Of a stretch of DNA of 64,000 nt, positions 42,125 to 60,229 are shown piece by piece. A program made the position numbers and the translations under genes. Origin of the DNA: Streptomyces nitrosporeus. Its GTDB lineage: Bacteria > Actinomycetota > Actinomycetes > Streptomycetales > Streptomycetaceae. The stretch lies in the NCBI RefSeq assembly GCF_008704555.1, contig NZ_CP023702.1:496001-560000 (forward strand). Reading direction: 5' to 3'. How positions within the stretch are numbered: the stretch's first letter is position 1; every line of letters begins with the position of its first letter. The notes beneath the pieces are model-generated. The model searched no databases, was not told the DNA's origin, and saw only the letters and a list, made by a program, of their open reading frames with translations.

Positions 42125-42802
42125 TCAGGCCACGGCCTCCCGCAGCGCGGCCCGGCAGAGGGCGTCCGCCCTGCGAGTGGTCTCCGGCTGACGGAAGTCA
42201 CGGGCCAGGGCGAGGGTGTGGGCGCACGCGTTGTCCAGTCCGGTGCGGTGGCCGACGGAGACGAAGACGGGTCTGGTGCCCTCCTGGGTGCGCAGGGCCC
42301 GGCCGACTTCCTCCTCCCCGTCCAGCAGCGGGCTGAAGTCGCCGCGGTGGGGGCCGGGTTGTCCGTACCGGAAGGTGAAGGGGTTCTTCGCGACACCGAT
42401 CACGGGGAGCCCGGTGAGCACACCGAGGTGGCTGGCGAGGCCGAACCTGCGCGGGTGGGCCCGTCCGTAGCCGTCGCAGACGACGAGCCCGGGGTCGGCG
42501 GTGAGCGCCTCCAGCGCGGCGAGCACGGCCGGGATCTCGCGGAAGGCCAGCAGCCCCGGCACATAGGGGAAGGTGACCTTGCCGCGCGCGGTGGACCGGT
42601 CGACCACGTCGAGTGTGGCCGCGTCCAGCACGACGGCCGCCGCGACCACGACGTCCCGCTCCTCGTCGTACGCCACGTCCACGCCGGTGACATGGCCGGT
42701 GCCGGGCGGCGGCCCGCTCTCGTCGAGCACCACCCGCTCGCGCAACACGTCCTGGAGGGCGCGGGCTTCGGCTTCGTCTGCGGGCATCGGGAACGTCGTC
42801 AT
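42125..42802 (-). CDS. nfi: Endonuclease V (deoxyinosine 3'-endonuclease)
   Basis: The 225-residue protein has the Nfi signatures: HVTGVDVAYDEERDVVVAAA (first catalytic Asp), VTFPYVPGLLAFREIPAVL (YxPGxLxFRExP), LVVCDGYGRAHPRRFGLASH (second catalytic Asp, DGxGxxHPRxxGxAxH), LPVIGVAKNPF and GHRTGLDNA. It cuts DNA near deoxyinosine as part of base-deamination repair. The ATG at 42802 has a TAGACT box 10 nt upstream and no strong ribosome binding site, so the leader is a few nucleotides at most. It is monocistronic. Length and motifs are normal. Confidence 0.93.
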   Translation of the reverse strand: MTTFPMPADEAEARALQDVLRERVVLDESGPPPGTGHVTGVDVAYDEERDVVVAAAVVLDAATLDVVDRSTARGKVTFPYVPGLLAFREIPAVLAALEALTADPGLVVCDGYGRAHPRRFGLASHLGVLTGLPVIGVAKNPFTFRYGQPGPHRGDFSPLLDGEEEVGRALRTQEGTRPVFVSVGHRTGLDNACAHTLALARDFRQPETTRRADALCRAALREAVA

Positions 42803-42858
42803 GGTGCGGCCGAGTCTAACGACGGCGCCGGCGGCCGGGCGGTCCGGTCCGTACCGCG

Positions 42859-42990
42859 AAAAGGACTGCGGGCACACCGGAAAGACGCCGCGGGTGCCCC
42901 GGGAAGGGACTGCGGGGGCCGTGGAGAGGGCACTGCCGGTGCCGTGGAGAAGGAGCCGCGGGTGCCGTGGAAAAGGGGCTGCGGGTGCCG
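42859..42990. repeat. 23-bp tandem repeat, about 5.7 copies
   Basis: Six consecutive units of 23 bp follow the consensus AAGGnnCTGCGGGTGCCGTG plus GAn, with the last three copies the most alike. Because 23 is not a multiple of three, the array cannot be a coding repeat. It fills the region between the divergent nfi and GNAT genes and ends 25 bp before the GNAT start. Confidence 0.85.
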
Positions 42991-43014
42991 TCGCCGCCCG
43001 GGGAGGATGGGGGC

Positions 43015-43488
43015 ATGGAGCTGAGCGGGGACAGGATCACACTGCGGCCGGTGACCGGGGACGACGTCGCCGCCCTCGACCGGATCGTACGGGAGCCGGC
43101 CGTCGCGGCGTGGTGGCCGCCCCCGGACGGCTACGAGGGCAAGCTGGCCGTCGTCCACGGGGGCGAGGTCATCGGTGCCGTCCAGTTCTCCGAGGAGGGC
43201 GGCCAGGAGTTCCGCCGCGCCGGCATCGACGTGTTCCTGACGACGGGGCACCACGGGGAGGGACTCGGCACCGACACGGTCCGCACGCTGGCCCGGTGGC
43301 TCGTGGAGGAGCGCCGCCACCACCGTCTGACCATCGACCCCGCCGCGGCCAACACCGCGGCGATCCGCTGTTACGGCAAGGCCGGGTTCAAGCCCGTGGG
43401 GATCATGCGGTCGTACTGGCGCAACCACCGGACAGGCGTCTGGGAGGACGGCCTGCTGATGGACCTGCTCGCGGACGAGCTGACCTGA
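43015..43488 (+). CDS. GNAT family N-acetyltransferase (AAC(6')-like)
   Basis: The 157-residue protein is a GNAT: ITLRPVTGDDVAALDRIVRE at the N-terminus, AVAAWWPPPDGYEGKLAVVH, the acetyl-CoA loop GHHGEGLGTDTVRTLARWLV (Q/RxxGxG/A-like) and the C-terminal IDPAAANTAAIRCYGKAGFK with GIMRSYWRN. This organisation resembles aminoglycoside 6'-N-acetyltransferases and their uncharacterised relatives. GGGAGG precedes the ATG at 43015. It is the last gene before the RiPP cluster and is separated from it by a hairpin with a T-run, so it is probably not part of it. Antibiotic acetylation is possible but unproven. Confidence 0.83.
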   Translation: MELSGDRITLRPVTGDDVAALDRIVREPAVAAWWPPPDGYEGKLAVVHGGEVIGAVQFSEEGGQEFRRAGIDVFLTTGHHGEGLGTDTVRTLARWLVEERRHHRLTIDPAAANTAAIRCYGKAGFKPVGIMRSYWRNHRTGVWEDGLLMDLLADELT

Positions 43489-43792: not shown

Positions 43793-43978
43793 GTGCAACA
43801 GGCAAGAACCCCCCGCTGGGCGGCCGTGGGGCCGCTCGAAGAGGGCGCCGAGGGCGAGGTGTTCGGCGGCGCGGCACCGATCGCCGCCACGCAGGTGGTC
43901 GTCACCGTCGCCGCCGCCGTGGTCGTCGCCTACGCGGCCGGCGCCATCATCGGCCAGACCGAACCCGTGATGCAGTGA
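43793..43978 (+). CDS. Linaridin-type RiPP precursor peptide 1
   Basis: A 61-residue peptide. GTG at 43793 is preceded by GGAGGAGGGAAC. The leader is acidic (GPLEEGAEGEVFGG). The C-terminal core is strongly hydrophobic (PIAATQVVVTVAAAVVVAYA, then AGAIIGQTEPVMQ). PIAATQ is one residue away from the PxxxTP motif of linaridin precursors, and by analogy with cypemycin cleavage would fall before ATQ. Its C-terminal tail, EPVMQ, matches EPVIQ of peptide 3. Only three Thr lie in the predicted core. Its stop overlaps the GTG of peptide 2 as GTGA. The biosynthetic genes follow in the same transcript. Precursor identity is inferred from context and shared pattern. Confidence 0.75.
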   Translation: MQQARTPRWAAVGPLEEGAEGEVFGGAAPIAATQVVVTVAAAVVVAYAAGAIIGQTEPVMQ

Positions 43979-44172
43979 CCGGGCCCCGGCGAGCGGGGGC
44001 CGAGCGGCTCCCGTTCCGTCACACCGCCCCGGCCACGACGCGTGAGCTGGTCCCGGACGACACCGGAGACCCCGGTGCGGCCGCCGGTCCGGTCGCCTCG
44101 GTCGTCGTGGCGGAGTTCGGCGCCGTCGTGGCGGTCAGTTTCATCGGGGGCAGCGAGTACCCGCATCTCTGA
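43975..44172 (+). CDS. Linaridin-type RiPP precursor peptide 2
   Basis: A 65-residue peptide whose GTG start overlaps the previous stop codon, so translation is probably coupled. The leader is basic, then acidic (GPRRAGAERLPFRH; ELVPDDTGDPG). The core is hydrophobic (GPVASVVVAEFGAVVAVSFI), ending GGSEYPHL. It is the most diverged of the four: the PxxxTP motif is reduced to PGAAAGP, the core has no Thr, and the tail lacks the EPVxQ end. It may be a decayed or specialised partner peptide, as in two-component bacteriocins. It is placed with the precursors by position, size and the Ala/Val helix pattern. Confidence 0.65.
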   Translation: MTGPRRAGAERLPFRHTAPATTRELVPDDTGDPGAAAGPVASVVVAEFGAVVAVSFIGGSEYPHL

Positions 44173-44244
44173 GCGGGCCCCTCGCGCCACCGGCCCGGCA
44201 CCCCACGCACCCGCGTGCCATCCGATCACACAAGGAGAAAGAGC

Positions 44245-44436
44245 ATGAACGTCGCCCTGTGCCCGGTCACCCCGGCCACGTCGCGTCCGCTGTCCGAGAC
44301 CGACACCGGCTTCACCCGCACGGAGGCCACCCCGGTCGCCGCCACCCCGGTGACCGCGGCGGCTTTCGTCGCGGGCATCGCGCTCGGCGTGGCCGTCTGC
44401 CAGGCGATCGGCTCGCAGGAGCCGGTCATCCAGTAG
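44245..44436 (+). CDS. Linaridin-type RiPP precursor peptide 3
   Basis: A 63-residue peptide. ATG at 44245 follows AAGGAG. The leader is MNVALCPVTPATSRPLSETD followed by TGFTRTEAT. The sequence PVAATP is a full PxxxTP linaridin motif and aligns with PAMATP of cypemycin; cleavage by analogy would leave a core starting ATPVTAAAFVAGIALGVAVC and ending QAIGSQEPVIQ. The core has two Thr and one Cys, but not the C-terminal Cys that cypemycin uses for its S-aminovinylcysteine ring. Its tail is shared with peptide 1. It is spaced 72 bp from peptide 2 with its own ribosome binding site. Confidence 0.8.
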   Translation: MNVALCPVTPATSRPLSETDTGFTRTEATPVAATPVTAAAFVAGIALGVAVCQAIGSQEPVIQ

Positions 44437-44481
44437 CCGCTCCCCCACCCGGAGAAGAACGACGAGGAAAAGGAGATCGAC

Positions 44482-44694
44482 ATGAGTGATGTGTCCTTTC
44501 TGCGGAGACCCGGCGCCCTCACCGACATCGGGATCGAGGATCCTGAGGGCCGGTACACCACCGCACACGCACCTGTCATGGCCACACCAGCAGTGGCATC
44601 GGGTGTGATCATCGGCTACGCCCTGGTGAACGCGTTCGTGGCCGGACGTGACGGCGGGCCCATCCAGCCCGTGCCGGAGATCGTCCTCGGCTGA
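44482..44694 (+). CDS. Linaridin-type RiPP precursor peptide 4
   Basis: A 70-residue peptide. ATG at 44482 follows AAAAGGAG. The leader (MSDVSFLRRPGALTDIGIED, PEGRYTTAHA) ends in PVMATP, a full PxxxTP motif almost identical to cypemycin's PAMATP. The predicted core is ATPAVASGVIIGYALVNAFV followed by AGRDGGPIQPVPEIVLG, longer and more polar at the end than the other three. Only one Thr is in the core. It is the last precursor before the modification genes, about 188 bp upstream of the LinH-like gene. It supports the linaridin assignment best of the four. Confidence 0.8.
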   Translation: MSDVSFLRRPGALTDIGIEDPEGRYTTAHAPVMATPAVASGVIIGYALVNAFVAGRDGGPIQPVPEIVLG

Positions 44695-44882
44695 CGCAGA
44701 CGTCCGGTCCCGGCACGGTCGGCGTACCGGCCGTGCCGGGACCGGCGAGGGCGGCCCGCCGGGGTCTCCCGCTCCGGAGCGCATCCGTATCCGGGTGGTC
44801 CGCACGCCGGGCCCCCGCCACCGGTCCACCCGGCGGCCGGGGCCGGTGCCGGTCACCCGGCTTCCGTCCAGGAGAACCTTCC

Positions 44883-46796
44883 ATGCCTTCTTCCCCCGAC
44901 AGGCCCAGAGCCTCCCGGCCCACGGTCCGGGCCGTGCTCTCGGCCCTCACCGGTCCTGTGCCCGTCTCCCGCACCCAGGCCATCGGCGCCGCCGAGCGCC
45001 TGGCAGCGGTGACCTCCCTGCTGTCCAGCCTGGAACACCTCACCGGCCCGGAGCACAAGCGGACGGGCGGACTGAACGACTGGGCCCTCGCCCGGCACGG
45101 CCACGCCCGCTACGGCAGGCCGCTGCGCAAGCTGCTCGACGCCGTGGCCGACGAGCGGACCACCCGGGTGCTGCATGCCGCCCGGGTGGCCGCGAGCGCC
45201 GCCCTCCTGCTGCCGGGCGACAGCCGCCGGCGCGGGGCCGCCAACCTCTTCCTCGGCGTCAGCGGGGCCCTGCTCTACCCCACCCACCGCTACGGCACCG
45301 ACGGGTCCGACCAGGCGTCCGGCATGGTGCAGACCGCGACCGGCCTGGCCCGGCTCGTCCCCTCGCCCGCGGCCCAGGACGCGCTGCTGTGGTACGTCGC
45401 GATCCAGTCCAACCTGTCGTACGCCGTCTCCGGCTGGGTCAAGCTGCTCGGCCGGGACTGGCGCGACGGCTCCGCGCTGACCGGCGTCATGCGCACCAGG
45501 ACCTACGGGCACGAGGGGGTCTGGCGGCTGGCCCGGCGCCACCCCCGCGCCGCGCGCACCCTGGCGCACGGCGTGCTGGCCCTGGAGTGCCTCTTCCCGG
45601 TGCTCTATCTCAAGGGCGGCCTGCTGGCCCGGCCGGTGATCGGCGCCGCCGCCGCCTTCCACGTCGCCAACGGCTTCGTCATGGGCCTGGGCAGGTTCGT
45701 TCCGGCCTTCACCGCGATGCATCCGATGGTCGCCTACACCAGCGCCCCGCGCAGCCACCCCGCGGTCGCCGGGCGGGACGACCGCATGCCGGCGGCCCTG
45801 GGCCTGCTCCTGGCGGGCACCGCGGCCGTCGCGGCCACCGTCGCCGCCCACCGCAGGCTGCGCGCCACCGACCACGCGTACGGCGGCACGGTCACCACCC
45901 GGCACGGCAACGAACTCGCCCACGACGGCACGGCCACCGGGCAGGGTTCCGGCCCGGTGACGGTCCTGGTGCACGGACTCGGTGCCCTGCCCGCCCACTT
46001 CAGCTGGTACACCAGGGCCCTCGGCGCCGGCGGACACCAGTGGCTGGCCTACAGCCGGGCCGGTTACGGGGCGAGCAGACGGCACGCCGGCACGCCGTAC
46101 CACCTGGGGGAATCGGTGGACGACCTGGTCGACCTGGTCGAGGCCGCCGTCCCGGCGGGGCGTCAGGTGTCGCTGGTGGGGCACTCCCTGGGCGGTGAGA
46201 TCGCCCGGCGGGCGGCCGTCCGGCTCGGCGGGCGGGTGCACTCCGTCGTCTACGTGGACAGCTCCCATCCCGAGCAGCTCGACCGGTCCGGCCAGCAGGG
46301 CCGGAACGCCCGCCACGTCGAGGAGATGATCCGCACCACCTCCGTCAGCCTGCGGCTGGGCCTCGGCATCCTCATGCAGACCCCCGACTGGGTCGAGAAC
46401 CTGCCCGCCCCCGTGCGGAGCCGCGCGATGGCCGAGTACGCCGACCCCCGGGTGTGGACCGCCGCCCTGCGGGAATGGCGGGCCGCGGAGCGGGACTTCC
46501 GCTCCTTCCAGGGCCCCCTCCCCCCGCTGGACACCCATGCCCTGGTGCTCTCGGCCCAGCACACGGTGGACCGCGACCCGGACCATCTGCTCATGCACAA
46601 GGACCTCGCCGACGCCCATCCGCCCGGCCGGACCGTGCGCAGCGCCGTCATCGAGGCGGCCGACCACGACGGCATCCTGACCGACCCCCGGTTCGCCGCC
46701 GAGGCGGCCCGCCACCTCGTCGGCTTCCTCGGTGACACCACCGCCCGGAACACGGACGGGCGGCACCCCGCCCCGGCGGAACAGGAGGCCCGGTGA
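44883..46796 (+). CDS. LinH/CypH-like membrane protein: HTTM-type domain fused to alpha/beta-hydrolase
   Basis: The 637-residue fusion has an N-terminal polytopic domain at about residues 60-310, resembling HTTM/gamma-carboxylase-like membrane proteins (LFLGVSGALLYPTHRYGTDG; WYVAIQSNLSYAVSGWVKLL; RTRTYGHEG). The C-terminal alpha/beta-hydrolase begins near residue 350: TVLVHGLGALPAHFSWYTRA (oxyanion region), LVGHSLGGEIARRAAVRLGG (nucleophile Ser at about 433) and AADHDGILTDPRF (catalytic His). This two-part architecture is that of CypH/LinH, which with LinL is required in every linaridin pathway and has been linked to peptide epimerisation or dehydration. The ATG at 44883 follows AGGAG, and its stop overlaps the next gene (GTGA). 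It probably acts on all four precursors at the membrane. Confidence 0.75.
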   Translation: MPSSPDRPRASRPTVRAVLSALTGPVPVSRTQAIGAAERLAAVTSLLSSLEHLTGPEHKRTGGLNDWALARHGHARYGRPLRKLLDAVADERTTRVLHAARVAASAALLLPGDSRRRGAANLFLGVSGALLYPTHRYGTDGSDQASGMVQTATGLARLVPSPAAQDALLWYVAIQSNLSYAVSGWVKLLGRDWRDGSALTGVMRTRTYGHEGVWRLARRHPRAARTLAHGVLALECLFPVLYLKGGLLARPVIGAAAAFHVANGFVMGLGRFVPAFTAMHPMVAYTSAPRSHPAVAGRDDRMPAALGLLLAGTAAVAATVAAHRRLRATDHAYGGTVTTRHGNELAHDGTATGQGSGPVTVLVHGLGALPAHFSWYTRALGAGGHQWLAYSRAGYGASRRHAGTPYHLGESVDDLVDLVEAAVPAGRQVSLVGHSLGGEIARRAAVRLGGRVHSVVYVDSSHPEQLDRSGQQGRNARHVEEMIRTTSVSLRLGLGILMQTPDWVENLPAPVRSRAMAEYADPRVWTAALREWRAAERDFRSFQGPLPPLDTHALVLSAQHTVDRDPDHLLMHKDLADAHPPGRTVRSAVIEAADHDGILTDPRFAAEAARHLVGFLGDTTARNTDGRHPAPAEQEAR

Positions 46797-47401
46797 ACAC
46801 CACCGTTCTCACCCGTCCCACCCGTCAGGTGTTCTCCCGGCACTTCGGCGGCACCGACGGCACGGTCCGGCTGCTCGCCGGCCTCGCGCTGGTGGGCACC
46901 ATCTGCTCCCAGCACCCGCAGCCGTCCTTCAGCAGGCTCATCCGGCTCGACGTGTTCTCCACGCTCTTCCCCAACTGGCGCTTCTTCGCGCCGAACCCGG
47001 CCCAGCACGACCTCCAGTTCTACTACCGCACCCTCGACGAGGCGGGGGAGACCTCCGACTGGGTCCCCGTCGAGGTCATCGCCGGGCGCAGGGCCCACCA
47101 GATCCTCTGGTTCCCCGGCCGCCGCGCGGAGAAGGCCGTCTTCGACCTGGGCGCCGAGGTGATGCGCCACCTCGACAAGGGCTTCGCGGTGGCCCGCGGC
47201 CTGCCCGGGTACCGCATCCTCTGCGCCTACTTCCGGGCCGGCATCGAGCGTTCGGGCGCCACCGGGGTGAAGGGCTTCCAGTTCACGCTCGTCCGCAACG
47301 CCGGCTACGACGACACCGAGGAGCCCGAGATCATCTTCGTCTCCCCCTACACACCGATGCGCGCCCCGTCCGCTCCGGCGGCAGAAAGCGAGAAGGCATG
47401 A
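46793..47401 (+). CDS. LinL/CypL-like partner protein
   Basis: The 202-residue protein has one hydrophobic segment near the N-terminus (VRLLAGLALVGTICSQHPQP) and a conserved-looking motif FPNWRFFAPNPAQHDLQFYY, which I associate with small partners of HTTM-type proteins. The rest is soluble (DWVPVEVIAGRRAHQILWFP; GYRILCAYFRAGIERSGATG). Size, position and coupling to the LinH-like gene fit LinL/CypL, reported to work as a membrane-bound pair with LinH. It overlaps both neighbours by 4 bp. The assignment is by context and pattern; I could not align it to CypL here. Confidence 0.65.
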   Translation: MNTTVLTRPTRQVFSRHFGGTDGTVRLLAGLALVGTICSQHPQPSFSRLIRLDVFSTLFPNWRFFAPNPAQHDLQFYYRTLDEAGETSDWVPVEVIAGRRAHQILWFPGRRAEKAVFDLGAEVMRHLDKGFAVARGLPGYRILCAYFRAGIERSGATGVKGFQFTLVRNAGYDDTEEPEIIFVSPYTPMRAPSAPAAESEKA

Positions 47402-48204
47402 GCACCGCCACCGCCCCGTCGGACACCGCGGCCCCCGAGATCGCGGACATCGGTTACGGCAGGGTCTTCGCCGGTTTCTACGACCGCCTCTTCCCCGAGG
47501 ACGGCGCCGCCGCCCGTACGGCCGCGGCGCTGGCCTCCTGGCATCCCGGCGGTCCCGCCCTCGAACTCGGTGTGGGCACGGGCCGCATCGCCGTACCGCT
47601 CGCCCGGCTCACCGGCGAGGTCGTCGGGGTGGACTCCTCCCCGGAGATGCTCGAACAGCTCCGCTCCGCCACCGGTCCCCAGGACGCGGTGACCCCCGTG
47701 CACGGCGACATCCGCACCCATGACGACGGCACCCGCTACGGGCTCGTCTACTGCGTCTGCGGGACGCTGTCCCTGGTGCTCGACCCGGCGGACCAGCGCG
47801 CCGCGATCACCCGCGCGGCGCGGAGCCTCGCTCCCGGGGGCACCCTGGTGGTGGAGACCCACAACCCGGGCTTCGTCCGCACCCTGCACGAAGGGCTCAG
47901 CCGCACCTCCTTCTTCGTGCCCTACCCCGAGCCGGGGACGGGACTGCAGACCTACTCCACCCTGCTCCTCGAACAGAACCTGTGGCACACCTCCCATCTG
48001 CTGCACGAGCCGGGCGGCACCCGCATCGGGAGCGAGATCACCCGGCTCACCACACCGGAGGACGTCGACGCCTACGCGACCGGTGCCGGACTCGAACGGA
48101 CGGGCCTGTACGGGGACTGGTCGGGCGGGCCGTTCGTCCCTGAGCGGAGCCCCGTCCACATCAGCCGCTTCACGCACGCCGCCGGCCGGACGGAACAGCC
48201 GTGA
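47398..48204 (+). CDS. SAM-dependent methyltransferase (CypM-like)
   Basis: The 268-residue class I methyltransferase has motif I ALELGVGTGRIAVPLARLTG, acidic motif EVVGVDSSPEMLEQL, post-I PVHGDIRTHDDGTRYGLVYC and motif III LAPGGTLVVETHNPGF. In linaridin clusters the methyltransferase (CypM) dimethylates the free N-terminal amine of the core after leader removal. With the predicted cores of peptides 1, 3 and 4 all starting with Ala, the same as cypemycin, N,N-dimethylalanine is the expected product. It is coupled by ATGA overlap to the LinL-like gene and by GTGA overlap to the transporter gene. O-methylation of another group cannot be excluded. Confidence 0.82.
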   Translation: MSTATAPSDTAAPEIADIGYGRVFAGFYDRLFPEDGAAARTAAALASWHPGGPALELGVGTGRIAVPLARLTGEVVGVDSSPEMLEQLRSATGPQDAVTPVHGDIRTHDDGTRYGLVYCVCGTLSLVLDPADQRAAITRAARSLAPGGTLVVETHNPGFVRTLHEGLSRTSFFVPYPEPGTGLQTYSTLLLEQNLWHTSHLLHEPGGTRIGSEITRLTTPEDVDAYATGAGLERTGLYGDWSGGPFVPERSPVHISRFTHAAGRTEQP

Positions 48205-50057
48205 CCGCCGCCACCGCCACCGCGGTACCGCGCGGGCTCGTCGCCGGTCTGACCCGCGACCAGCGCAGACTGCTGGCGGGCGGGGTGCTGCTGGGGTCGG
48301 CCGGGGTGGTGTCCACCCTCGTACAGCCCAAGCTGGTCGCCCGGCTCATCGAGGCGGCGGGCCGGCACGAACCGGTCGCCGCCCTCGTCGCCCTGCTGGC
48401 CGTGCTGTTCGTGGCGGACGCCGTGCTCTCCGCGACCCAGGGCTGCCTCATCGGCCGGGCCGGCGAGAACATCGTCCGCGAGGCGCGGGTCCGGCTCTCC
48501 GGCAGGGTCCTGCGCGCCGATCTCGCGTATCTGGACTCCCAGCGGCAGGGCGACGTGCACACCCGGCTGGTGGGTGACACCGCGCTGATGAAGATCGCGC
48601 TGACCCAGAGCCTCGCGCAGATCCTCCTCAACGGCCTGATCGTGGTCGGCGGGACCGTGATGATGGCTTTGATCGACGTCTGGCTGCTGCTGGTGACCGT
48701 CGGCTGCCTCGGTGTGGCGAGCGTCGCCTCCGTCGGGGTGGCCCGGGGCCTGCGCAAGGCGGCCCTGGTGAACCGCGCGGACACCGGTGAGTTCGGCGCG
48801 GACCTCCAGCGTGTGCTGGCCGCCCTGCCCACCGTGAAGGCGGCCGGTGCCGAAGGCCGCGAGGAGGACCGGCTCGCGGCGCTCGCGGACCGGGTGCGCC
48901 GGTCCGGCAACCGGGTCACCGTCCTGAACGCGCTGTTCTCACCCGTCCTGAACGTGGGCCTCCAGGTGTCGCTGGCCGCGGTGATGGGCATCGGCATGGC
49001 CCGGGTGGCCACCGGTTCCCTGGGGGTCGCCGACTTCACCGCCTTCACGATGTACCTCTTCTACCTCGTCTCCCCGCTGGTCCTGGTGTTCCTCTCGGTC
49101 GGCACCTACCAGCAGGGCCGGGCCGCCGTGCAACGGGTGGACGAACTGGCGGGGATCCCGCAGGAGGACGCCCCTCCCCCCCGGGGTGCCGCCGCTCCCG
49201 CCGCGCCAAAGGACGGTGACGGGCCGCCGGCCGGCGGCGCGGTCCACGAGGGCGGCCACCCGGCGGTGGAGTTCCGCGACGTCGGCTTCGGCTACGGCGA
49301 CCGGCCCGTCCTGGAGGCGGTCTCCTTCACCGTCCCCCGCCGTGGGCTCACCGCGCTGGTCGGCGTCTCCGGCGCGGGCAAGACCACCGTCTTCCAGCTC
49401 ATCGAGCGGTTCTACCGGCCCGGGCGCGGCAGCGTCGTCCTGGACGGCAAGGACATCGCGTATCTGTCCCCCGCCGAATTCCGCGGCCGCGTCGGCTACG
49501 TCCAGCAGGACAGCGCGGCCATGCGCGGCACCGTCCGGGAGAACATCGTCTACGCGGCACCCGACGCCACCGAGGCGGACATAGCCGAGGCCGTCGAGCT
49601 CGCCGGTCTCGGTGACGTGGTCGCGGCCCTGCCCGACGGTCTGGACACCCGCCTCGGCGACCAGGGGACCGGCCTCTCCGGCGGCCAGCGGCAGCGGCTC
49701 TGTGTGGCCCGTGCCCTGTTGCAGAAGCCCGCGGTGATCCTCCTCGACGAGGCCACCGCCCATCTGGACTCCGAGGCCGAGGCGGCCCTGCGCGACAGTC
49801 TCCGGCGCATCGCGCGCCGCTGCGCGGTCGTCGCCATCGCCCACCGCATCTCCACCGTGGCCGAGGCCGACCGCATCGTGGTCCTGGACGGCGGCCGGGT
49901 CCGGGCCGTCGGCACGCACCGGCAGCTCATCCGGGAGGACGACCTCTACCGGCGGCTGGCCGCCGCCCAGTTCGCGGACGGCGCCCGCGCCGCCTCCCCG
50001 GGGGAGGACGTGTCCGGTGCGCCGGTGGCGCTGCCCGCGGCGGGGGTCGCCGGATGA
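48201..50057 (+). CDS. ABC transporter, fused permease-ATPase (RiPP exporter, CypT-like)
   Basis: The 618-residue half-transporter has a six-helix membrane domain (about residues 30-310) containing LDSQRQGDVHTRLVGDTALM, a Pro/Ala/Gly-rich linker (DAPPPRGAAAPAAP), then an ATPase domain: Walker A GVSGAGKTTVFQ at about residue 388, Q-loop GYVQQDSAAM, signature LSGGQRQRLCVARALL, Walker B VILLDEAT and the H-loop AHRIST. No N-terminal C39 peptidase domain is present, so leader removal must be done by another protease. It probably exports the mature peptides and confers self-protection. Coupled to the methyltransferase gene. Confidence 0.88.
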   Translation: MTAATATAVPRGLVAGLTRDQRRLLAGGVLLGSAGVVSTLVQPKLVARLIEAAGRHEPVAALVALLAVLFVADAVLSATQGCLIGRAGENIVREARVRLSGRVLRADLAYLDSQRQGDVHTRLVGDTALMKIALTQSLAQILLNGLIVVGGTVMMALIDVWLLLVTVGCLGVASVASVGVARGLRKAALVNRADTGEFGADLQRVLAALPTVKAAGAEGREEDRLAALADRVRRSGNRVTVLNALFSPVLNVGLQVSLAAVMGIGMARVATGSLGVADFTAFTMYLFYLVSPLVLVFLSVGTYQQGRAAVQRVDELAGIPQEDAPPPRGAAAPAAPKDGDGPPAGGAVHEGGHPAVEFRDVGFGYGDRPVLEAVSFTVPRRGLTALVGVSGAGKTTVFQLIERFYRPGRGSVVLDGKDIAYLSPAEFRGRVGYVQQDSAAMRGTVRENIVYAAPDATEADIAEAVELAGLGDVVAALPDGLDTRLGDQGTGLSGGQRQRLCVARALLQKPAVILLDEATAHLDSEAEAALRDSLRRIARRCAVVAIAHRISTVAEADRIVVLDGGRVRAVGTHRQLIREDDLYRRLAAAQFADGARAASPGEDVSGAPVALPAAGVAG

Positions 50058-50163
50058 CCCCCGGCCCCGCCGAGGGCCCGCCCCGGCGGGCGGGGAGCCC
50101 GCCGCCCGTACCCGGGGGCGGCCCGGCCGGTACGCTGCCCGCCCGGGGGCGGGGGTGCCCCCG

Positions 50164-51648
50164 GTGAGCGCGGTGGACGCGGCCGTCGTCGGCAGCGGAC
50201 CGAACGGCCTCGCGGCCGCCGTCACCCTGGCCAGAGCGGGACTGCGGGTCGCGGTGTACGAGGCCGCCGGTACCGTCGGGGGCGGGCTGCGCGGAGCCGA
50301 CCTCTTCGGCTCCGGCGTGGTCCACGACATCTGCTCGGCGGTCCATCCGATGGGGATGTCCTCCCCGTTCTTCAGGGAGTTCGGGCTCGCCGCGCGTGTG
50401 GACATGCTCCGCCCGGAGGTCAGCTACGCCCACCCCCTCGACGGCGGGCGGGCGGCCCTGGCCTGGCACGACCTGGACGCGACCTGTGCCGGGCTGGGAC
50501 GGGACGGAGCGCGCTGGCGCCGGCTGATGGAACCCCTGCTGGCGCACGGCGACGACCTGGCCGGGCTGCTCCTCTCCGACCTGCGCCGCCCGCCCGGGCT
50601 CCGGGCCGCGCCGGCGCTGGCGGGCCGGGTCCTGCTCCACGGGACCCGGCTGGGGCCGCGGTCCTTCCGCGACGAGGAGGCACGGGCCCTGCTCGCGGGC
50701 GCCGCCGCGCATCTGACCGGCCCGCTGCCGTCGCTGCCCGGCGCCGCCGTGGGACTGCTGCTGGCCACGCTCGCCCACGGTCCCGGCTGGCCGGTTCCGC
50801 GCGGCGGCAGCCGGAGCATCGCCGAGGCGCTGGCCGCCGACATCCGGGCGCACGGCGGAGTGCTGCACACCGGGCGGAAGATCACCGACCTGCGGGAACT
50901 GGCGGGTGTCCGGGTGGTGCTGCTGGACGTCTCGCCCACGGCCCTGGCGGCCCTGGCCGGGGACCGGCTCCCCGGGGGCTATGCCCGGGCGCTGCGCCGC
51001 TACCGGTACGGTCCGTCCGCCGGCAAGGCCGACTTCCTCGTCTCGGAGCCGATCCCCTGGTCCGCCCCCGGCACCGGCCGGGCGGTGACCGTGCACCTCG
51101 GCGGCACCGCGGCGGAGGTCTTCCGCCAGGAGACGGCCAACGCCCGCGGTACGGCGGGCGAGCGGCCCTTCGTGCTGGTGGTGGACCCGGCGGTCGCCGA
51201 CCCGGAGCGGGCCCGGCCCGGTCTCCGTCCGGTGTGGGCCTACGCCCACCTCCCGCACGGGTCCGCCCGCGACCCGCTCCCCCTCGTCCGGGCGGCGATC
51301 GAACGGTACGCCCCGGGCTTCACCGGCACCGTGGTCGCCGAACGCGGCATGTCCGGGGCCGATTACGCCCGTTACAACCCCAACTACGTCGGCGGGGACA
51401 TCGCGACGGGCGCGATCGGCCTCCGGCAGAGCGTGTTCAGGCCCGTCGCCCGGTGGGACCCGTACCGTACCCCGCTGCCGGGCGTCTACCTGTGCTCCGC
51501 GGCCACCCCGCCGGGGCCCGGGGTGCACGGGATGTGCGGCCTGCTGGCCGCCCGCACGGCACTGCGCCGGGAGTTCGGCCTGCCCCTGCCGCCGCTGGGA
51601 CGGGCCGGCGCCGGGGCGGACGGCCCCGGCGGGGCGGGGGCGGGGTGA
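50164..51648 (+). CDS. Phytoene-desaturase-like FAD oxidoreductase (LinE-like)
   Basis: The 494-residue flavoprotein begins with the dinucleotide-binding motif AAVVGSGPNGLAAAVTLARA and YEAAGTVGGGLRGADLFG, and ends with YLCSAATPPGPGVHGMCGLL, the CrtI/CrtISO-type C-terminal FAD contact. NAD(P)/FAD oxidoreductases of this family (often called LinE) occur in a subset of linaridin clusters, where their reaction is not settled; desaturation or isomerisation of residues is possible. It is the last plus-strand gene of the operon, 106 bp after the transporter, in a very GC-rich gap. The GTG at 50164 was chosen although its ribosome binding site is weak; a GTG at 50173 is also possible. Confidence 0.78.
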   Translation: MSAVDAAVVGSGPNGLAAAVTLARAGLRVAVYEAAGTVGGGLRGADLFGSGVVHDICSAVHPMGMSSPFFREFGLAARVDMLRPEVSYAHPLDGGRAALAWHDLDATCAGLGRDGARWRRLMEPLLAHGDDLAGLLLSDLRRPPGLRAAPALAGRVLLHGTRLGPRSFRDEEARALLAGAAAHLTGPLPSLPGAAVGLLLATLAHGPGWPVPRGGSRSIAEALAADIRAHGGVLHTGRKITDLRELAGVRVVLLDVSPTALAALAGDRLPGGYARALRRYRYGPSAGKADFLVSEPIPWSAPGTGRAVTVHLGGTAAEVFRQETANARGTAGERPFVLVVDPAVADPERARPGLRPVWAYAHLPHGSARDPLPLVRAAIERYAPGFTGTVVAERGMSGADYARYNPNYVGGDIATGAIGLRQSVFRPVARWDPYRTPLPGVYLCSAATPPGPGVHGMCGLLAARTALRREFGLPLPPLGRAGAGADGPGGAGAG

Positions 51649-51691: not shown

Positions 51692-52696
51692 TCACACCCA
51701 GCCGCGCTCGCGTGCGAGCAGGGCCGCCTGGGCCCGGTTGCGGGCGCCCAGCAGCCGCAGGACGTCGGAGATGTGCCTCCGGTAGCTGCGCAGGGACATC
51801 CGGGCCTCCCGGGCACCCGCCTCGTCCTTGCTGGCGGCGCACATGACGGTGAGCACCAGGTGCTGGGTGTCGGTGAGCCGCGCGACCTCGCCGGTGTCGG
51901 CCGCGACCAGGCCGGCGAAGTCGGCCGCGGTGGCCCACAGCCGTTCGAAGAGTCCGACCAGGCTGCTCACCAGCCCGCCCTCCTCCGTGTACAGGGCTCC
52001 GCGTGCGGGGTCGCGGGCGTCGATGGGCACCAGGGCCGCGTGCCGGTCGTAGACGAGGATCAGCTCGGAGAGTTCGTCGGCGACCCGGACGGCCGCTCCG
52101 GCACGGTGCAGTTCCCGCAGGCGTGCCAGGGCGCCTGTGTCCGCGAGGGCTGTGAGGCGTACGAGGACGCGTACCCGGACCTCCTTGCCCAGCCGGCCGG
52201 GGCCGAGGTGCTGGGCGTACGCGGCACTCTCCGGCGACAGGGTGTCGTAGGGTTCGGCCGACAGCACCTCCGACCGGGCGTCGAAGGCCAGTTGGCCCAC
52301 CCGGGCCCGTACCTGCCGCAGATCCCCCAGCCGGTGCAGGGCGGCTCTCTCCCCTTCCGGTGAAGCGGGCCCCGGTGCCGGTCTGTCCCGTTGCAGCGAC
52401 CGCAGGATCGGCCGGATGTCGACGAGCTGGCGCATCGTCCGGTGCGCCGTGTCCAGCCGCTCACCGGCCAGGCGGGGCACGGCGACGACAGGGTCCACGG
52501 CCCAGGTGCTCTCGTCGTCACCGTGCAGCAGCCACAGTCGTCTCAGCTGTGCGATCGCCTGTGCGCCGTCCGCCCGGTCCCGGGGGAGCACGTCGTGGGC
52601 CGCGCGCTCCGGTGTCCCGGGGTTGCGCAGGAAGTGCCGGTAGATGTCCTCCTCGGTGCTGGTCAGGCCGAGTACGGACATGCTGTGGGTGTTCAT
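51692..52696 (-). CDS. TrmB/LuxR-like helix-turn-helix regulator of the RiPP cluster
   Basis: The 334-residue protein starts at ATG 52696 behind GGGGAGG. The N-terminal winged helix is TrmB-like (VLGLTSTEEDIYRHFLRNPG), the middle region is LVRLTALADTGALARLRELH and ELILVYDRHAALVPIDARDP, and the C-terminal LuxR-type HTH is EARMSLRSYRRHISDVLRLL followed by GARNRAQAALLARERGW. It is paralogous to the regulator at 29267-30451. It converges on the LinE-like gene and is divergent from the ATPase-GNAT regulator, which places it as a pathway-specific regulator. Direct GTCTCA repeats lie in the divergent region. The ligand is unknown. Confidence 0.82.
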   Translation of the reverse strand: MNTHSMSVLGLTSTEEDIYRHFLRNPGTPERAAHDVLPRDRADGAQAIAQLRRLWLLHGDDESTWAVDPVVAVPRLAGERLDTAHRTMRQLVDIRPILRSLQRDRPAPGPASPEGERAALHRLGDLRQVRARVGQLAFDARSEVLSAEPYDTLSPESAAYAQHLGPGRLGKEVRVRVLVRLTALADTGALARLRELHRAGAAVRVADELSELILVYDRHAALVPIDARDPARGALYTEEGGLVSSLVGLFERLWATAADFAGLVAADTGEVARLTDTQHLVLTVMCAASKDEAGAREARMSLRSYRRHISDVLRLLGARNRAQAALLARERGWV

Positions 52697-52772: not shown

Positions 52773-52789
52773 GTCTCACAGAGGTCTCA
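52773..52789. promoter_or_regulatory. GTCTCA direct repeats in the divergent regulator promoter
   Basis: GTCTCA occurs at 52773-52778 and 52784-52789, exactly 11 bp apart, one helical turn, and again at 52886-52891. Direct repeats on one face of the helix suit a regulator that binds head-to-tail. The position between the two divergent regulator genes suggests mutual or autoregulation. Confidence 0.45.
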
Positions 52790-52835
52790 TGAAGAGAACT
52801 CCGCTCGCGGCCTTCTCGCGGCAAAGGCCGGTCAT

Positions 52836-52841
52836 TAGGGT
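52836..52841 (+). promoter_or_regulatory. Candidate -10 box of a leaderless ATPase-GNAT regulator transcript
   Basis: TAGGGT is followed by exactly 7 nt (GTTCGCC) and GTG at 52849. Confidence 0.5.
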
Positions 52842-52848
52842 GTTCGCC

Positions 52849-54720
52849 GTGATCACCGGCGGTCCGCCGGGGAGCGGGGCAGGGGGTCTCATGGCTGGGG
52901 CGGCGACGGGGTCTTCGGTGAGAGCGACACCGGAGGTCCTGAGGGCGGCGGTGGAGGAGCACCGGCTGGTCAACCTGACCGGGCCGCTCGGCAGCGGGAA
53001 GTCCTGGCTGGTGTCGCGGCTTCCGTCGGCACGCACGGTGGACCTGGCCTGCGCCGGAGCGGGGGACGCCGTGCGCACGGCACTCGGCGAACGTACCGCG
53101 CAGCCGCTCGTCCTGGACGGCGCGGACGGCCCCGGGGCCCTCGCGCTGCTGGAGCACGTACGGACCGCGTACGAAGCACGTCCGGCACCGTTGGTCCTGG
53201 TGAGCCGCCGGTCCTTACTGGCCCGGCCCGGGTGGACCCTCTCGGGCGCCGCGGTCGTCGAAACGGCGCCCTGGCCCGACGACCGCGTCGCACGGCTGGC
53301 GGTGGCCGCGCAACTGACCGGCCCGGCGGCCCGGGAGCTGGTCGTCCGGCTGGCCGGGGGCAACCCGCTGATCGCCGGCGCGGTCTGCCGGGCGCTGCAC
53401 GCGGGCGCCACGCCGGACTCCCCCGGGGCCGTCGCCGACCAGGTCGCCCAGGAGATCACCGAGCGGCTCTCCCGCGAGCAGCCCGCCCACCGGTGGCAGC
53501 GGGCCCTGGAGAGGCTCGCCGCCATGTGGGGCGGCGACCGGGAATTGCTCGGAGCCGACCGGGAGCTCTTCGGCACCCTCGGCGGGCTCAGCCTCGTGAC
53601 CCGTACGGAACTCGGTCTCGCCGTCGTCGAACCGTTCCGCAGCGTGTTCGAACAAGCCTATCGGTGGCGGCAGCCCGCGGCCCACAGCGGTTCGCGGTCC
53701 CGCGCGCTCACCCACCGCGGGCGGCAACTGGGCTCGGAGACGGCCGTCACCCGCCGGAGCAGGATCGCCGAGGGGGTCATGGCCCTCAGCGGCGACGCCG
53801 TCATCCACGAGACGCTGTTCCCGGCGAGCCCCGCCGACGGCGCGATCCAGACCGCCGTCCCGGGCGACGCCGACGCCATCGGAGGGCTGATGCACGGCTG
53901 GGCCCGGCAGGGGGGCATGGACACCCGGCGCACGGAACGTCTGGTGGAGCAGTGGCTGCGCGACGATCCCGCCGGTTTCCGGCTCGCCCGGGACCGGGAC
54001 GGCCGGGCCGTGGGCGTCATGGGTCTGGTCCGGGTGGCCGACCGCACCGTCAGCAGCGTGGAACCCCTGCTCCAGCAGCACACCGAGCGGGTGCTGAGCG
54101 GCCGGCGGGCGCAGTCGCTGGTGCTCGGGGCCGCGTACTGCCCGGACCGGGGCCTGCACGCGCGGCTGTTGCGCGACCTGCTGCACCACGTCATGGCCAA
54201 CGGCCTGCTGCTGACCGTCTCCACACCGAACCCGCACTACCAGCGGCTGCTGGACCGGCTCCGTTTCCACCAGCACGGCACCACCACCGACGACGTCTAC
54301 CAGTGCGGCCGCAAACCCGAGATCTACAGCCAGGACTTCGAGCGTGACGCGATCGCCGGCTGGGTGGGACGGCTGGCCCTCGGCCCGGGCGGCGCCCCGC
54401 ACTCCACCGGCCGGGACGTCGGCCAGGCCCTCGCCCACATCACCGATGCCGGCTGGCTGGCGCACAGCCCGCTGCTGCGCCCCCCGCACACCACGACGGC
54501 GGGGGACCTCCAGGAGGCGCTGCGGGAGGGGGTGCGCGCGCTGGCGGACAGCGAAGAGCCCGGGGAGGCCGAGGCTGGCTGGATCCTGCTGCACTACTAC
54601 CTCGGGCGCCCGCAGACCCATCAGCAGCTGGCGCGCCGGCTCCACATGAGCCGGGCCACGTACTTCCGCCGGCTGCGGTACGGACTCGACGTCCTGGGGC
54701 GGCGGCTGACGGCGGGCTGA
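52849..54720 (+). CDS. Large ATPase-GNAT-HTH fusion protein, candidate cluster regulator
   Basis: The 623-residue protein seems to have three parts. Residues about 25-230 form a P-loop ATPase: VNLTGPLGSGKSWLVSRLPS (Walker A), QPLVLDGADGPGALALLEHV (Walker B-like) and ERLSREQPAHRWQRALERLA, as in STAND-type regulators. Residues about 320-490 resemble a GNAT acetyltransferase: IQTAVPGDADAIGGLMHGWA, GFRLARDRDGRAVGVMGLVR and RRAQSLVLGAAYCPDRGLHA. The C-terminus is a helix-turn-helix (THQQLARRLHMSRATYFRRL). It lies divergent from the LuxR-like regulator beside the RiPP genes. An acetyl-CoA-sensing regulator is an attractive guess, but this domain combination is not one I recognise. An in-frame ATG at 52891 is an alternative start. 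Confidence 0.7.
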   Translation: MITGGPPGSGAGGLMAGAATGSSVRATPEVLRAAVEEHRLVNLTGPLGSGKSWLVSRLPSARTVDLACAGAGDAVRTALGERTAQPLVLDGADGPGALALLEHVRTAYEARPAPLVLVSRRSLLARPGWTLSGAAVVETAPWPDDRVARLAVAAQLTGPAARELVVRLAGGNPLIAGAVCRALHAGATPDSPGAVADQVAQEITERLSREQPAHRWQRALERLAAMWGGDRELLGADRELFGTLGGLSLVTRTELGLAVVEPFRSVFEQAYRWRQPAAHSGSRSRALTHRGRQLGSETAVTRRSRIAEGVMALSGDAVIHETLFPASPADGAIQTAVPGDADAIGGLMHGWARQGGMDTRRTERLVEQWLRDDPAGFRLARDRDGRAVGVMGLVRVADRTVSSVEPLLQQHTERVLSGRRAQSLVLGAAYCPDRGLHARLLRDLLHHVMANGLLLTVSTPNPHYQRLLDRLRFHQHGTTTDDVYQCGRKPEIYSQDFERDAIAGWVGRLALGPGGAPHSTGRDVGQALAHITDAGWLAHSPLLRPPHTTTAGDLQEALREGVRALADSEEPGEAEAGWILLHYYLGRPQTHQQLARRLHMSRATYFRRLRYGLDVLGRRLTAG

Positions 54721-59254: not shown

Positions 59255-60229
59255 GTGACGATCACCGCTGCCCACCTCGGCAGTTCGAAGGCGTGGACCG
59301 ACGCCCAGCTGCTGTACGCACTCGAGGAGGTGGTGGAGAAGGAGCTCAACCGTCATCTCAAGGTCGCCAAGGACTGGATGCCCCACGAGTACGTGCCGTT
59401 CTCCGACGGCCGCAACTTCCCCGGCGTCTTCGAGGACGGCGAGGCGTGGGCGAGCGACCAGTCCAAGGTCACCGACATCGGCAAGATCGCGCTGGTGGTG
59501 AATCTGCTGACCGAGGACAACCTCCCCAGCTACCACCACGAGATCGCCTCCCTCTTCGGACGCGACGGCGCCTGGGGCACCTGGGTGCACCGCTGGACGG
59601 CCGAGGAGGGCCGGCACGGCATCGTGATGCGCGACTACCTCCTCACCTCGCGCGCCGTGGACCCGGACAAGCTGGAGCAGTTCCGCATGGCGCACATGGC
59701 GGAGGGTTTCGAGTCCGACAACCGCCACTCCATGCTGCACTCGGTGGCGTACGTCGCCTTCCAGGAGCTGGCCACCCGCGTCTCGCACCGCAACACCGGC
59801 CACCAGTCGGGCGACCCCGTGTGCGACCGGATGCTGGCCCGCATCGCGACCGACGAGAACCTGCACATGGTCTTCTACCGGAACCTGCTCGGCGCGGCCT
59901 TCGAGCTCGCCCCGGACCTGACCATGCAGGCCGTGCGCGACGTCGTCGTCAACTTCCGGATGCCCGGCCACGGCATGCCGGGCTTCGAGCGGGCCGCCGC
60001 GCAGATGGCGATCGGCGAGATCTACAACATGCGCATCCACCACGACGACGTGATCCAGCCCGTGCTGCGCTACCTGAAGGTCCTGGACATCGACGGCCTG
60101 GGCCCGGAGGGGCTCAAGGCGCAGGACGAACTCGGTCTGTACATGGGCGGTCTCGACGACGAGGCCGCCAAGTTCGACGAGAAACTGGCCGCCCGCAAGG
60201 CCCGCATGGCGGCCCGCGCCGGAGCCTGA
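59255..60229 (+). CDS. Acyl-ACP desaturase (DesA-type, soluble diiron)
   Basis: The 324-residue ferritin-like diiron enzyme has the two EExxH-type clusters: RWTAEEGRHGIVMRDYLL (about residue 112) and IATDENLHMVFYRNLLG (about residue 202), with further ligand Glu in VNLLTEDNLPSYHHEI. It inserts a cis double bond into acyl-ACP (or acyl-CoA) using oxygen and reduced ferredoxin, regulating membrane fluidity. GTG at 59255 follows CAGGAG. Its promoter carries the palindromic operator described separately, which fits lipid-responsive repression. The C-terminus is basic (AARKARMAARAGA). Soluble, cytoplasmic; no membrane helices. Confidence 0.93.
   Translation: MTITAAHLGSSKAWTDAQLLYALEEVVEKELNRHLKVAKDWMPHEYVPFSDGRNFPGVFEDGEAWASDQSKVTDIGKIALVVNLLTEDNLPSYHHEIASLFGRDGAWGTWVHRWTAEEGRHGIVMRDYLLTSRAVDPDKLEQFRMAHMAEGFESDNRHSMLHSVAYVAFQELATRVSHRNTGHQSGDPVCDRMLARIATDENLHMVFYRNLLGAAFELAPDLTMQAVRDVVVNFRMPGHGMPGFERAAAQMAIGEIYNMRIHHDDVIQPVLRYLKVLDIDGLGPEGLKAQDELGLYMGGLDDEAAKFDEKLAARKARMAARAGA

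What the first reader, a model, noticed from the sequence alone, without database searches (positions are those of the whole stretch)
43793..51648. Four-precursor linaridin-type RiPP cluster of unusual composition
Seen: four small genes in a row with strong ribosome binding sites, each with a polar leader and a hydrophobic core, followed by a membrane/hydrolase fusion, a small partner, a methyltransferase, an ABC exporter and a phytoene-desaturase-like enzyme, mostly coupled by 4-bp overlaps. Known: linaridin pathways require LinH (membrane plus alpha/beta-hydrolase) and LinL, often with a CypM methyltransferase and an exporter, and their precursors carry PxxxTP. Peptides 3 and 4 have PVAATP and PVMATP, close to PAMATP of cypemycin. 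Inference: a linaridin cluster, but with four non-identical substrates, no CypD-like decarboxylase, no C-terminal Cys and few Thr. Its products cannot be cypemycin-like and may be a new subclass, perhaps acting in combination.
Basis: partly seen in the sequence, partly recalled or inferred. Interest (0 to 1): 0.93.

Follow-up and report, generated by a model that had tools for sequence, protein, structure and literature searches.

The report
Multi-peptide, threonine-poor linaridin gene cluster
This stretch of a bacterial genome (very likely Streptomyces) carries genes for four short oily peptides beside enzymes of the linaridin family, and 44 of 70 related clusters carry two or more such peptides of two recurring types, so the peptides likely act together on membranes after being predicted to gain mirror-image amino acids, which would make this a little-known multi-peptide branch of a small natural-product family.

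Summary
In detail: four small genes (A1 43793, A2 43975, A3 44245, A4 44482), then LinH, LinL, a methyltransferase, an ABC exporter and a phytoene-desaturase-like flavoenzyme. LinH and LinL are homologous to those of the loci taken to be grisemycin (S. griseus) and legonaridin (Streptomyces CT34), so it is a linaridin-type cluster. Its accessory enzymes are the ordinary type-B set (56-66% identical to CT34; the methyltransferase matches YunM, E 2e-86), so the enzyme composition is less unusual than claimed. The peptides are unusual. Among 70 relatives with enough upstream DNA, 44 encode an alpha plus a beta precursor before LinH (34 exactly one of each; 21 none by my model), so the four-peptide cluster looks like an expanded two-peptide system. 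Cores are rich in Ala/Val/Gly and poor in Thr (4.4%, legonaridin 21%, grisemycin 6%). In the window's clade C-terminal tails match within a cluster but not between clusters (0 of 1000 permutations); leaders and cores do not. LinH-N/LinL resemble an HTTM/DUF5819 gene pair. Best reading: LinHL likely epimerises the cores, the methyltransferase caps them, and the peptides likely act jointly on membranes. Product chemistry is untested. New variant of a known kind.

The parts
43793..43978 (+). precursor A1 (61 aa, GTG start; motif PIAATQ; core ..VVVAYAAGAIIGQTEPVMQ), likely the alpha-type peptide
   Evidence: models built without the window's clade give only 9.6 (alpha) and 11.5 (beta) bits, so the alpha assignment rests on bridging relatives L008, L009, L039
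43975..44172 (+). precursor A2 (65 aa, GTG start overlapping the A1 stop; PVASVV, no PxxxTP)
   Evidence: 45% to L003; same position and overlap in L001, L002, L003; no alpha/beta model match of note
44245..44436 (+). precursor A3 (63 aa, motif PVAATP; fast evolving)
44482..44694 (+). precursor A4 (70 aa, motif PVMATP), beta-type peptide
   Evidence: strict beta model 37.6 bits, E 1.1e-9
44883..46796 (+). LinH: N-terminal HTTM-like membrane domain fused to an alpha/beta hydrolase; invariant Lys187 (45441-45443), triad candidates Ser435 (46185-46187), Asp459 (46257-46259), His595 (46665-46667)
46793..47401 (+). LinL, small membrane-associated partner (DUF5819-like)
47398..48204 (+). alpha-N-methyltransferase, YunM/CypM kind
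48201..50057 (+). ABC exporter (membrane and ATPase domains, no C39 peptidase domain listed)
50164..51648 (+). phytoene-desaturase/CrtO-like FAD oxidoreductase (start uncertain)
   Evidence: 66% to the CT34 legonaridin-type locus
51692..52696 (-). cluster-associated regulator with a weak LuxR-type C-terminus, found beside LinH in 21 of 69 relatives (start inferred)
52789..54720 (+). 643-aa predicted P-loop protein, no Pfam match at E 0.01, conserved in 10 of 79 loci, those of the multi-peptide clade (one of them over 100 residues only)

Best explanation
The region encodes a linaridin-type peptide pathway, apparently of a third branch, in which four precursors, likely an expanded alpha/beta pair, are predicted to be epimerised by LinH/LinL, capped by N-terminal dimethylation, cut near the PVxATP motif and exported, and would then act together on membranes. 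Shown by sequence: the gene set, homology of LinH and LinL to those of characterised-type linaridin loci, the recurring alpha and beta precursors, the Ala/Val/Gly-rich Thr-poor cores, and the cluster-specific C-terminal tails. Taken from literature: LinHL as an epimerase, CypM as an alpha-N-methyltransferase. Inferred: that LinHL makes D-residues in these cores, cleavage before ATP (A2: before SVV), joint membrane action helped by GxxxG helix contacts, and that the tails are read by something cluster-specific such as immunity, target or exporter.
For: LinH 30.6% over 386 aa, E 1.6e-33, to the S. griseus locus whose precursor passes the curated CypA cut-off (94 bits); LinL profile E 4.5e-19 to 3.7e-29. 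Methyltransferase to YunM E 1.9e-86 and CypM E 2.2e-8. LinL within 8 kb of LinH in 64 of 64 loci with enough flanks; LinL, methyltransferase, ABC and flavoenzyme all present in 40 of 64. Alpha plus beta upstream of LinH in 44 of 70 loci. Thr 4.4% of 104 PxxxTP cores, 10 of 104 with no Ser or Thr after the motif, so dehydration there cannot be the common reaction. PMC10406935 (introduction read) lists LinHL among RiPP L-to-D epimerases. GxxxG: alpha 53 against 31.9 +/- 4.5 shuffled, beta 49 against 34.2 +/- 5.0. Tails: within-cluster identity 0.414 against 0.127 between, 0 of 1000 permutations.
Against: A1 scores only 9.6 (alpha) and 11.5 (beta) bits with models built without the window's clade, and A2 3.2 bits at best. 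21 of 70 loci had no precursor by the model and 5 had one kind only. Grisemycin's precursor has only 1 Thr in 16 residues after the motif, so Thr poverty is striking only against type B; the motif's own Thr, left out of these counts, may stay in the product. Beta GxxxG counts are reached by at least one shuffle (maximum 52). The cores carry net negative side-chain charge, unlike most membrane-active bacteriocins. No immunity gene was recognised. No product has been observed.
Confidence: 0.55

Rival explanations
1. An ordinary type-B linaridin pathway: LinH/LinL chiefly lead to dehydration of the few Thr/Ser, and the four peptides are independent products of one promiscuous enzyme set, with no joint action.
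For: Methyltransferase, ABC and flavoenzyme are 56-66% identical to the CT34 locus; corynaridin, a type-B linaridin, is reported to have all its Thr and Ser dehydrated (PMC9927463 abstract); all four window cores, motif included, keep at least one Thr or Ser.
Against: 10 of 104 relatives' cores have neither Thr nor Ser after the motif and 22 have no Thr; alpha and beta types recur as a pair, alpha first; the grisemycin- and legonaridin-type LinH-N group together (96/99) apart from the window-type rows (long branches, and the window-type rows are not themselves one well-supported clade).
Confidence: 0.25
2. The extra peptides diversify function: one conserved pair kills, while A2 and A3 are fast-evolving immunity or signalling peptides using the same tail as address.
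For: A3 dN/dS 0.71-2.03 against A1 0.18-0.47 and LinL 0.18-0.37 (very short genes); A2 lacks PxxxTP; tails shared by different peptide types in a cluster.
Against: A2 and A3 keep a leader, a motif-like site and a hydrophobic core like substrates; A4 also reaches dN/dS 1.13 in one pair.
Confidence: 0.15
3. Shared tails arise only by gene conversion or recent duplication inside each cluster, without function.
For: Tandem paralogues in one operon are prone to conversion; L006 tails are nearly identical in DNA, and different codons are somewhat fewer than for independent draws (56 of 166 against 72.4 expected).
Against: A third of the identical residues are still coded by different codons (one of 29 rows, L001 A2, was read out of frame); leader and core show no such homogenisation.
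Confidence: 0.2

Closest known systems
Type-B linaridins: the legonaridin-type locus of Streptomyces sp. CT34 (L102) and the similar S. noursei locus (L103)
   Same: Methyltransferase 56%, ABC 56-58%, phytoene-desaturase-like enzyme 66-67% identical, LinL and HTTM-like protein present
   Different: There HTTM-like protein and hydrolase are separate genes and the one precursor found has 7 (CT34) or 5 (S. noursei) Thr in 34 residues after the motif; here LinH is one fused protein and there are four precursors with few Thr
Type-A linaridins: the grisemycin-type locus of S. griseus (L101)
   Same: Fused LinH (30.6% over 386 aa), LinL, weak methyltransferase similarity (27% over 218 aa), A4 matches the precursor over 27 residues round the motif
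   Different: One precursor ending ..STICLVC over the curated CypA cut-off; no similar flavoenzyme in the 18 kb fetched; here no C-terminal Cys
Linaridin-annotated cluster of S. scabiei 87-22 (L028; a cryptic linaridin is listed in PMC8914351 and mentioned in PMC7369419; that L028 is this entry is my inference from its place on the chromosome)
   Same: LinH 55%, LinL 40%, ABC, methyltransferase and flavoenzyme present
   Different: One long Ala/Asn-rich precursor with PTLGTP, no alpha/beta pair
Class IIb two-peptide bacteriocins
   Same: Two different hydrophobic peptides with GxxxG encoded together
   Different: No typical double-glycine leader, no C39 peptidase exporter; modification enzymes present
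Daptides
   Same: Several short hydrophobic precursors, related methyltransferase family (84 bits, below cut-off 175)
   Different: No C-terminal Thr; no aminotransferase, alcohol dehydrogenase or RRE protein recognised

Membership tests
Linaridin | LinH and LinL homologues together | tested here: met
   LinH E 1.6e-33 (five loci searched) and LinL profile E 4.5e-19 to 3.7e-29 (per genome) against characterised-type loci
Linaridin | PxxxTP motif in the precursors | tested here: inconclusive
   met in A3 and A4; A1 has PIAATQ, A2 PVASVV
Linaridin | dehydrobutyrine (dehydrated Thr) in the product | not testable with these tools
   needs mass spectrometry; Thr counts after the motif are low
Linaridin | alpha-N-methyltransferase (usual; lacking in corynaridin) | tested here: met
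   PDB YunM E 1.9e-86, CypM E 2.2e-8
Type-A linaridin | precursor over the CypA model cut-off, C-terminal Cys, CypD decarboxylase | tested here: not met
   NF033752 14.0 and 15.4 bits against cut-off 35; C-termini Q, L, Q, G; no decarboxylase domain among the ten proteins scanned
Type-B linaridin | methyltransferase, exporter, oxidoreductase of the legonaridin-locus kind and no decarboxylase | tested here: met
Type-B linaridin | separate HTTM-like and hydrolase genes | tested here: not met
   fused in the window and in 71 of 79 loci (open stretch of 560-720 aa; the other 8 are fragments, out of that size range or not open); split in L102 and L103
Class IIb two-peptide bacteriocin | GxxxG in both peptides | tested here: met
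   A1 GAIIG, A3 GIALG, A4 GVIIG; A2 none; enrichment
Class IIb two-peptide bacteriocin | double-glycine leader and C39 peptidase exporter | tested here: not met
   no C39 domain among the exporter's Pfam matches; A1 has a GG two residues before its motif, the leaders of A2-A4 have none
Class IIb two-peptide bacteriocin | both peptides needed for activity | not testable with these tools
   needs purified peptides
Daptide | C-terminal Thr and aminotransferase/oxidative decarboxylase/RRE protein | tested here: not met
   C-termini Q, L, Q, G; no such families among the ten proteins scanned; definition from passages of PMC10036551
HTTM/DUF5819 membrane pair | profile similarity of LinH-N to HTTM and LinL to DUF5819 | tested here: inconclusive
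   hhalign to the genome's own HTTM 86.7% E 4.4e-6, DUF5819 82.3% E 1e-5; Pfam DUF5819 in 73 of 76 LinL at E <= 0.1, window 23.4 bits below cut-off 27.1; HTTM in 4 of 72 LinH at E <= 1, best 0.007; the split CT34 and S. noursei proteins match LMF1 weakly, not HTTM

The most novel reading that the evidence does not exclude
A two-peptide class of linaridins: paired alpha and beta peptides carrying patterned D-residues made by a membrane epimerase (LinH-N/LinL) that descends from the HTTM/DUF5819 pair and keeps the HTTM-family lysine (Lys187), assembling into heteromeric membrane helices or pores, with a cluster-specific C-terminal tail carried by the peptides of a cluster as a self/non-self code.
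Probability: 0.2. Interest if true: 0.85.

Novelty: new variant of a known kind. Interest (0 to 1): 0.6.

Why it matters
In the papers seen here linaridins are described as single linear peptides marked by dehydrated Thr. A group that keeps the family-determining pair LinH/LinL (full-length, over 700 bits, in 27 of 392 genomes of the genus, own genome included) but has cores with few or no Thr separates the LinHL reaction from dehydration, and so makes the question 'what does LinHL do by itself' directly testable on Ser/Thr-free members. Joint action of paired peptides would, as far as the papers seen here show, be new for this family, and the cluster-specific tails give a concrete handle on target or immunity specificity. 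The similarity of LinH-N/LinL to a housekeeping-looking HTTM/DUF5819 gene pair suggests where this enzyme came from.

Tried and rejected

Papers: PMC9927463 parts 1-2 of 7 and passages; PMC10406935 part 1 of 7 (abstract, introduction, start of results) and one reference passage; passages only of PMC10373908, PMC10036551, PMC10880069, PMC8068269, PMC5719810, PMC8914351, PMC7616364, PMC7369419; others as search listings.

Rows dropped: only peptides with PxxxTP were counted (104, from 52 loci) and the motif's own Thr was left out, 8 of 46 peptides lacked the regular-expression motif and were left out (with 43 peptides and no such filter, gave tail identity 0.417 against 0.112, 0 of 2000 permutations); the 8 residues just before the motif come nearest to a within-cluster effect (55 of 1000 permutations as high). 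L078 and L079 and the loci with under 1.3 kb upstream were left out of the 70 loci; the 64 loci of the same call need 1.5 kb upstream and 5.5 kb downstream. The alpha and beta models were seeded with 16 peptides, among them A1 and A4, which therefore match by construction; one search repeats the test without the window's clade.

Full report
What is there. The window lies at G000:C1:496001-560000 of a 7.58-Mb, one-contig genome; the listed relatives of LinH at 79% identity or more that bear a name are all Streptomyces. Four small genes precede a nearly gapless operon of LinH (637 aa), LinL (202 aa), a methyltransferase (268 aa), an ABC exporter (618 aa) and a CrtO/phytoene-desaturase-like flavoenzyme (494 aa). 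A1/A2 and the enzyme genes from LinH to the exporter are joined by 4-bp overlaps. A regulator (51692-52696, minus strand; in 21 of 69 relatives with enough DNA) and a 643-aa P-loop protein (52789-54720; in 10 of 79 loci, all of the multi-peptide clade) belong to the conserved neighbourhood.

Is it a linaridin cluster? A scan of one genome per species gave 79 loci with a LinH relative (at most 80 are returned). Characterised-type loci were then found in three of those organisms: S. griseus with a CypA-family precursor at 94.1 bits (cut-off 35), Streptomyces CT34 (named as the legonaridin strain in PMC9927463) and S. noursei; the latter two score only 18.7 and 21 bits with the CypA model. The window's LinH matches the S. 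griseus LinH at 30.6% over 386 residues (E 1.6e-33), the CT34 HTTM-like protein (E 2.4e-26) and the CT34 hydrolase (E 1.5e-7), in a search of five fetched loci. A LinL profile finds the three LinL genes at E 4.5e-19, 4.4e-27 and 3.7e-29. The methyltransferase matches YunM (7wzf, E 1.9e-86) and CypM (7wzg, E 2.2e-8). Against CT34 the window's ABC is 58%, the flavoenzyme 66% and the methyltransferase 56% identical. So it is a linaridin pathway with the type-B accessory set but a fused LinH (fused in 71 of 79 loci). The LinH-N tree puts the three reference proteins together (96/99) apart from the 20 window-type rows, which are not themselves resolved as one clade, with long branches; 'third branch' is therefore a reading. 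S. griseus, S. noursei and CT34 hold both a characterised-type locus and a window-type LinH/LinL.

The precursors. The three nearest loci (L001 81%, L002 83%, L003 85% in LinH) carry A1-A4 in the same order; L004, L006, L007, L009, L018, L039 and L062 carry 3-5 upstream candidates. Outside this clade the usual arrangement is two: an alpha peptide ending like VVTGAYAAGKAVG and a beta peptide like GAFLGGVAIASATVAAFEAG, alpha first, beta next to LinH. Of 70 loci with at least 1.3 kb upstream, 34 have exactly one alpha and one beta, 10 have three or more including both, 5 have one kind only and 21 none by the model; some of the 21 have visible but divergent precursors, such as L035 and the scabiei group. 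A beta model built from 36 loci outside the window's clade scores A4 at 37.6 bits (E 1.1e-9; 28.0 with the alpha model). For A1 the alpha and beta models give only 9.6 and 11.5 bits, while L008, L009 and L039 of the same clade score 50.9, 49.7 and 40.4 with alpha. So A4 is beta; A1 is alpha only by way of intermediates; A3 is ambiguous (20.9/20.5); A2 is its own type.

Composition. In 104 PxxxTP peptides of 52 loci the part after the motif is 63% Ala/Val/Gly and 4.4% Thr (median one Thr); 22 have no Thr and 10 neither Thr nor Ser. The CT34 precursor has 7 Thr in 34, the S. noursei one 5 in 34, but the S. griseus one only 1 in 16. GxxxG exceeds the mean of shuffled cores (alpha 53 against 31.9 +/- 4.5, maximum 45; beta 49 against 34.2 +/- 5.0, maximum 52; 91 unique cores).

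Tails. Within the window's clade (12 loci, 38 of 46 peptides) the last 8 residues agree at 0.414 inside a cluster and 0.127 between clusters (0 of 1000 label permutations as high), while two leader segments, the core start and the pre-tail show ratios of 0.84-1.15 (55 to 964 of 1000 as high). Examples: L006 THPTLPHA in all three, L062 NVELPM in three of four, L007 RP in all five. In the window itself A1 and A3 share it (EPVMQ, EPVIQ); A2 and A4 do not. Identical residues use different codons in 56 of 166 pairs (72.4 expected if independent; one of 29 rows misread), so recent conversion alone does not explain it, though it may contribute. The two-peptide relatives mostly lack such tails, so LinH/LinL do not seem to need them. 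I read the tail as a product-level address (immunity, target or export), but this is unexplained.

Selection. dN/dS (NG86, very short genes): A1 0.18-0.47, A4 0.15-1.13, A3 0.71-2.03, LinL 0.18-0.37 over five pairs.

Spread. Full-length LinH of this type (over 700 bits) is in 27 of 392 genomes of the genus, own genome included. A4 relatives are called only 'hypothetical protein' where a source names them (13 proteins including A4 itself).

Verdict. Linaridin membership by enzymes is well supported; the product class is untested. The finding is a new variant: a multi-peptide, Thr-poor branch whose usual arrangement is an alpha/beta pair.

Noticed in passing
L108 1832-4209 (own genome C1 about 3870331-3872708): An adjacent DUF5819 and HTTM gene pair with no peptide cluster seen in the 7.5 kb fetched, the likely housekeeping relatives of LinL and LinH-N.
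   Followed up: partly
L033 (Streptomyces sp. CT34): A window-type LinH/LinL pair with no matching methyltransferase, exporter, flavoenzyme or recognised precursor beside it: an orphan pair in the strain reported to make legonaridin.
   Followed up: partly
L054 (Streptomyces anulatus JCM 4721): The full enzyme set and regulator are present but no precursor gene was found upstream of LinH.
   Followed up: partly
L027, L028, L030-L032, L040, L041: A sister group (S. scabiei and kin) has a LinH cluster whose precursor is one long Ala-rich peptide with PTLGTP instead of an alpha/beta pair.
   Followed up: no
L035 9205-9709: Two divergent precursors ending in the same ACFDAADGGAGVCG: another case of a shared tail within one cluster, here with two Cys.
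   Followed up: no
window 59606-59673, minus strand: Rfam match to ASdes (68.6 bits, gathering score 40).
   Followed up: no
window 42967-43488 and 42125-42877: A GNAT acetyltransferase and an endonuclease V gene just upstream of the cluster; the GNAT gene has no match at E 1e-10 in the 79 loci, the other was not tested.
   Followed up: partly
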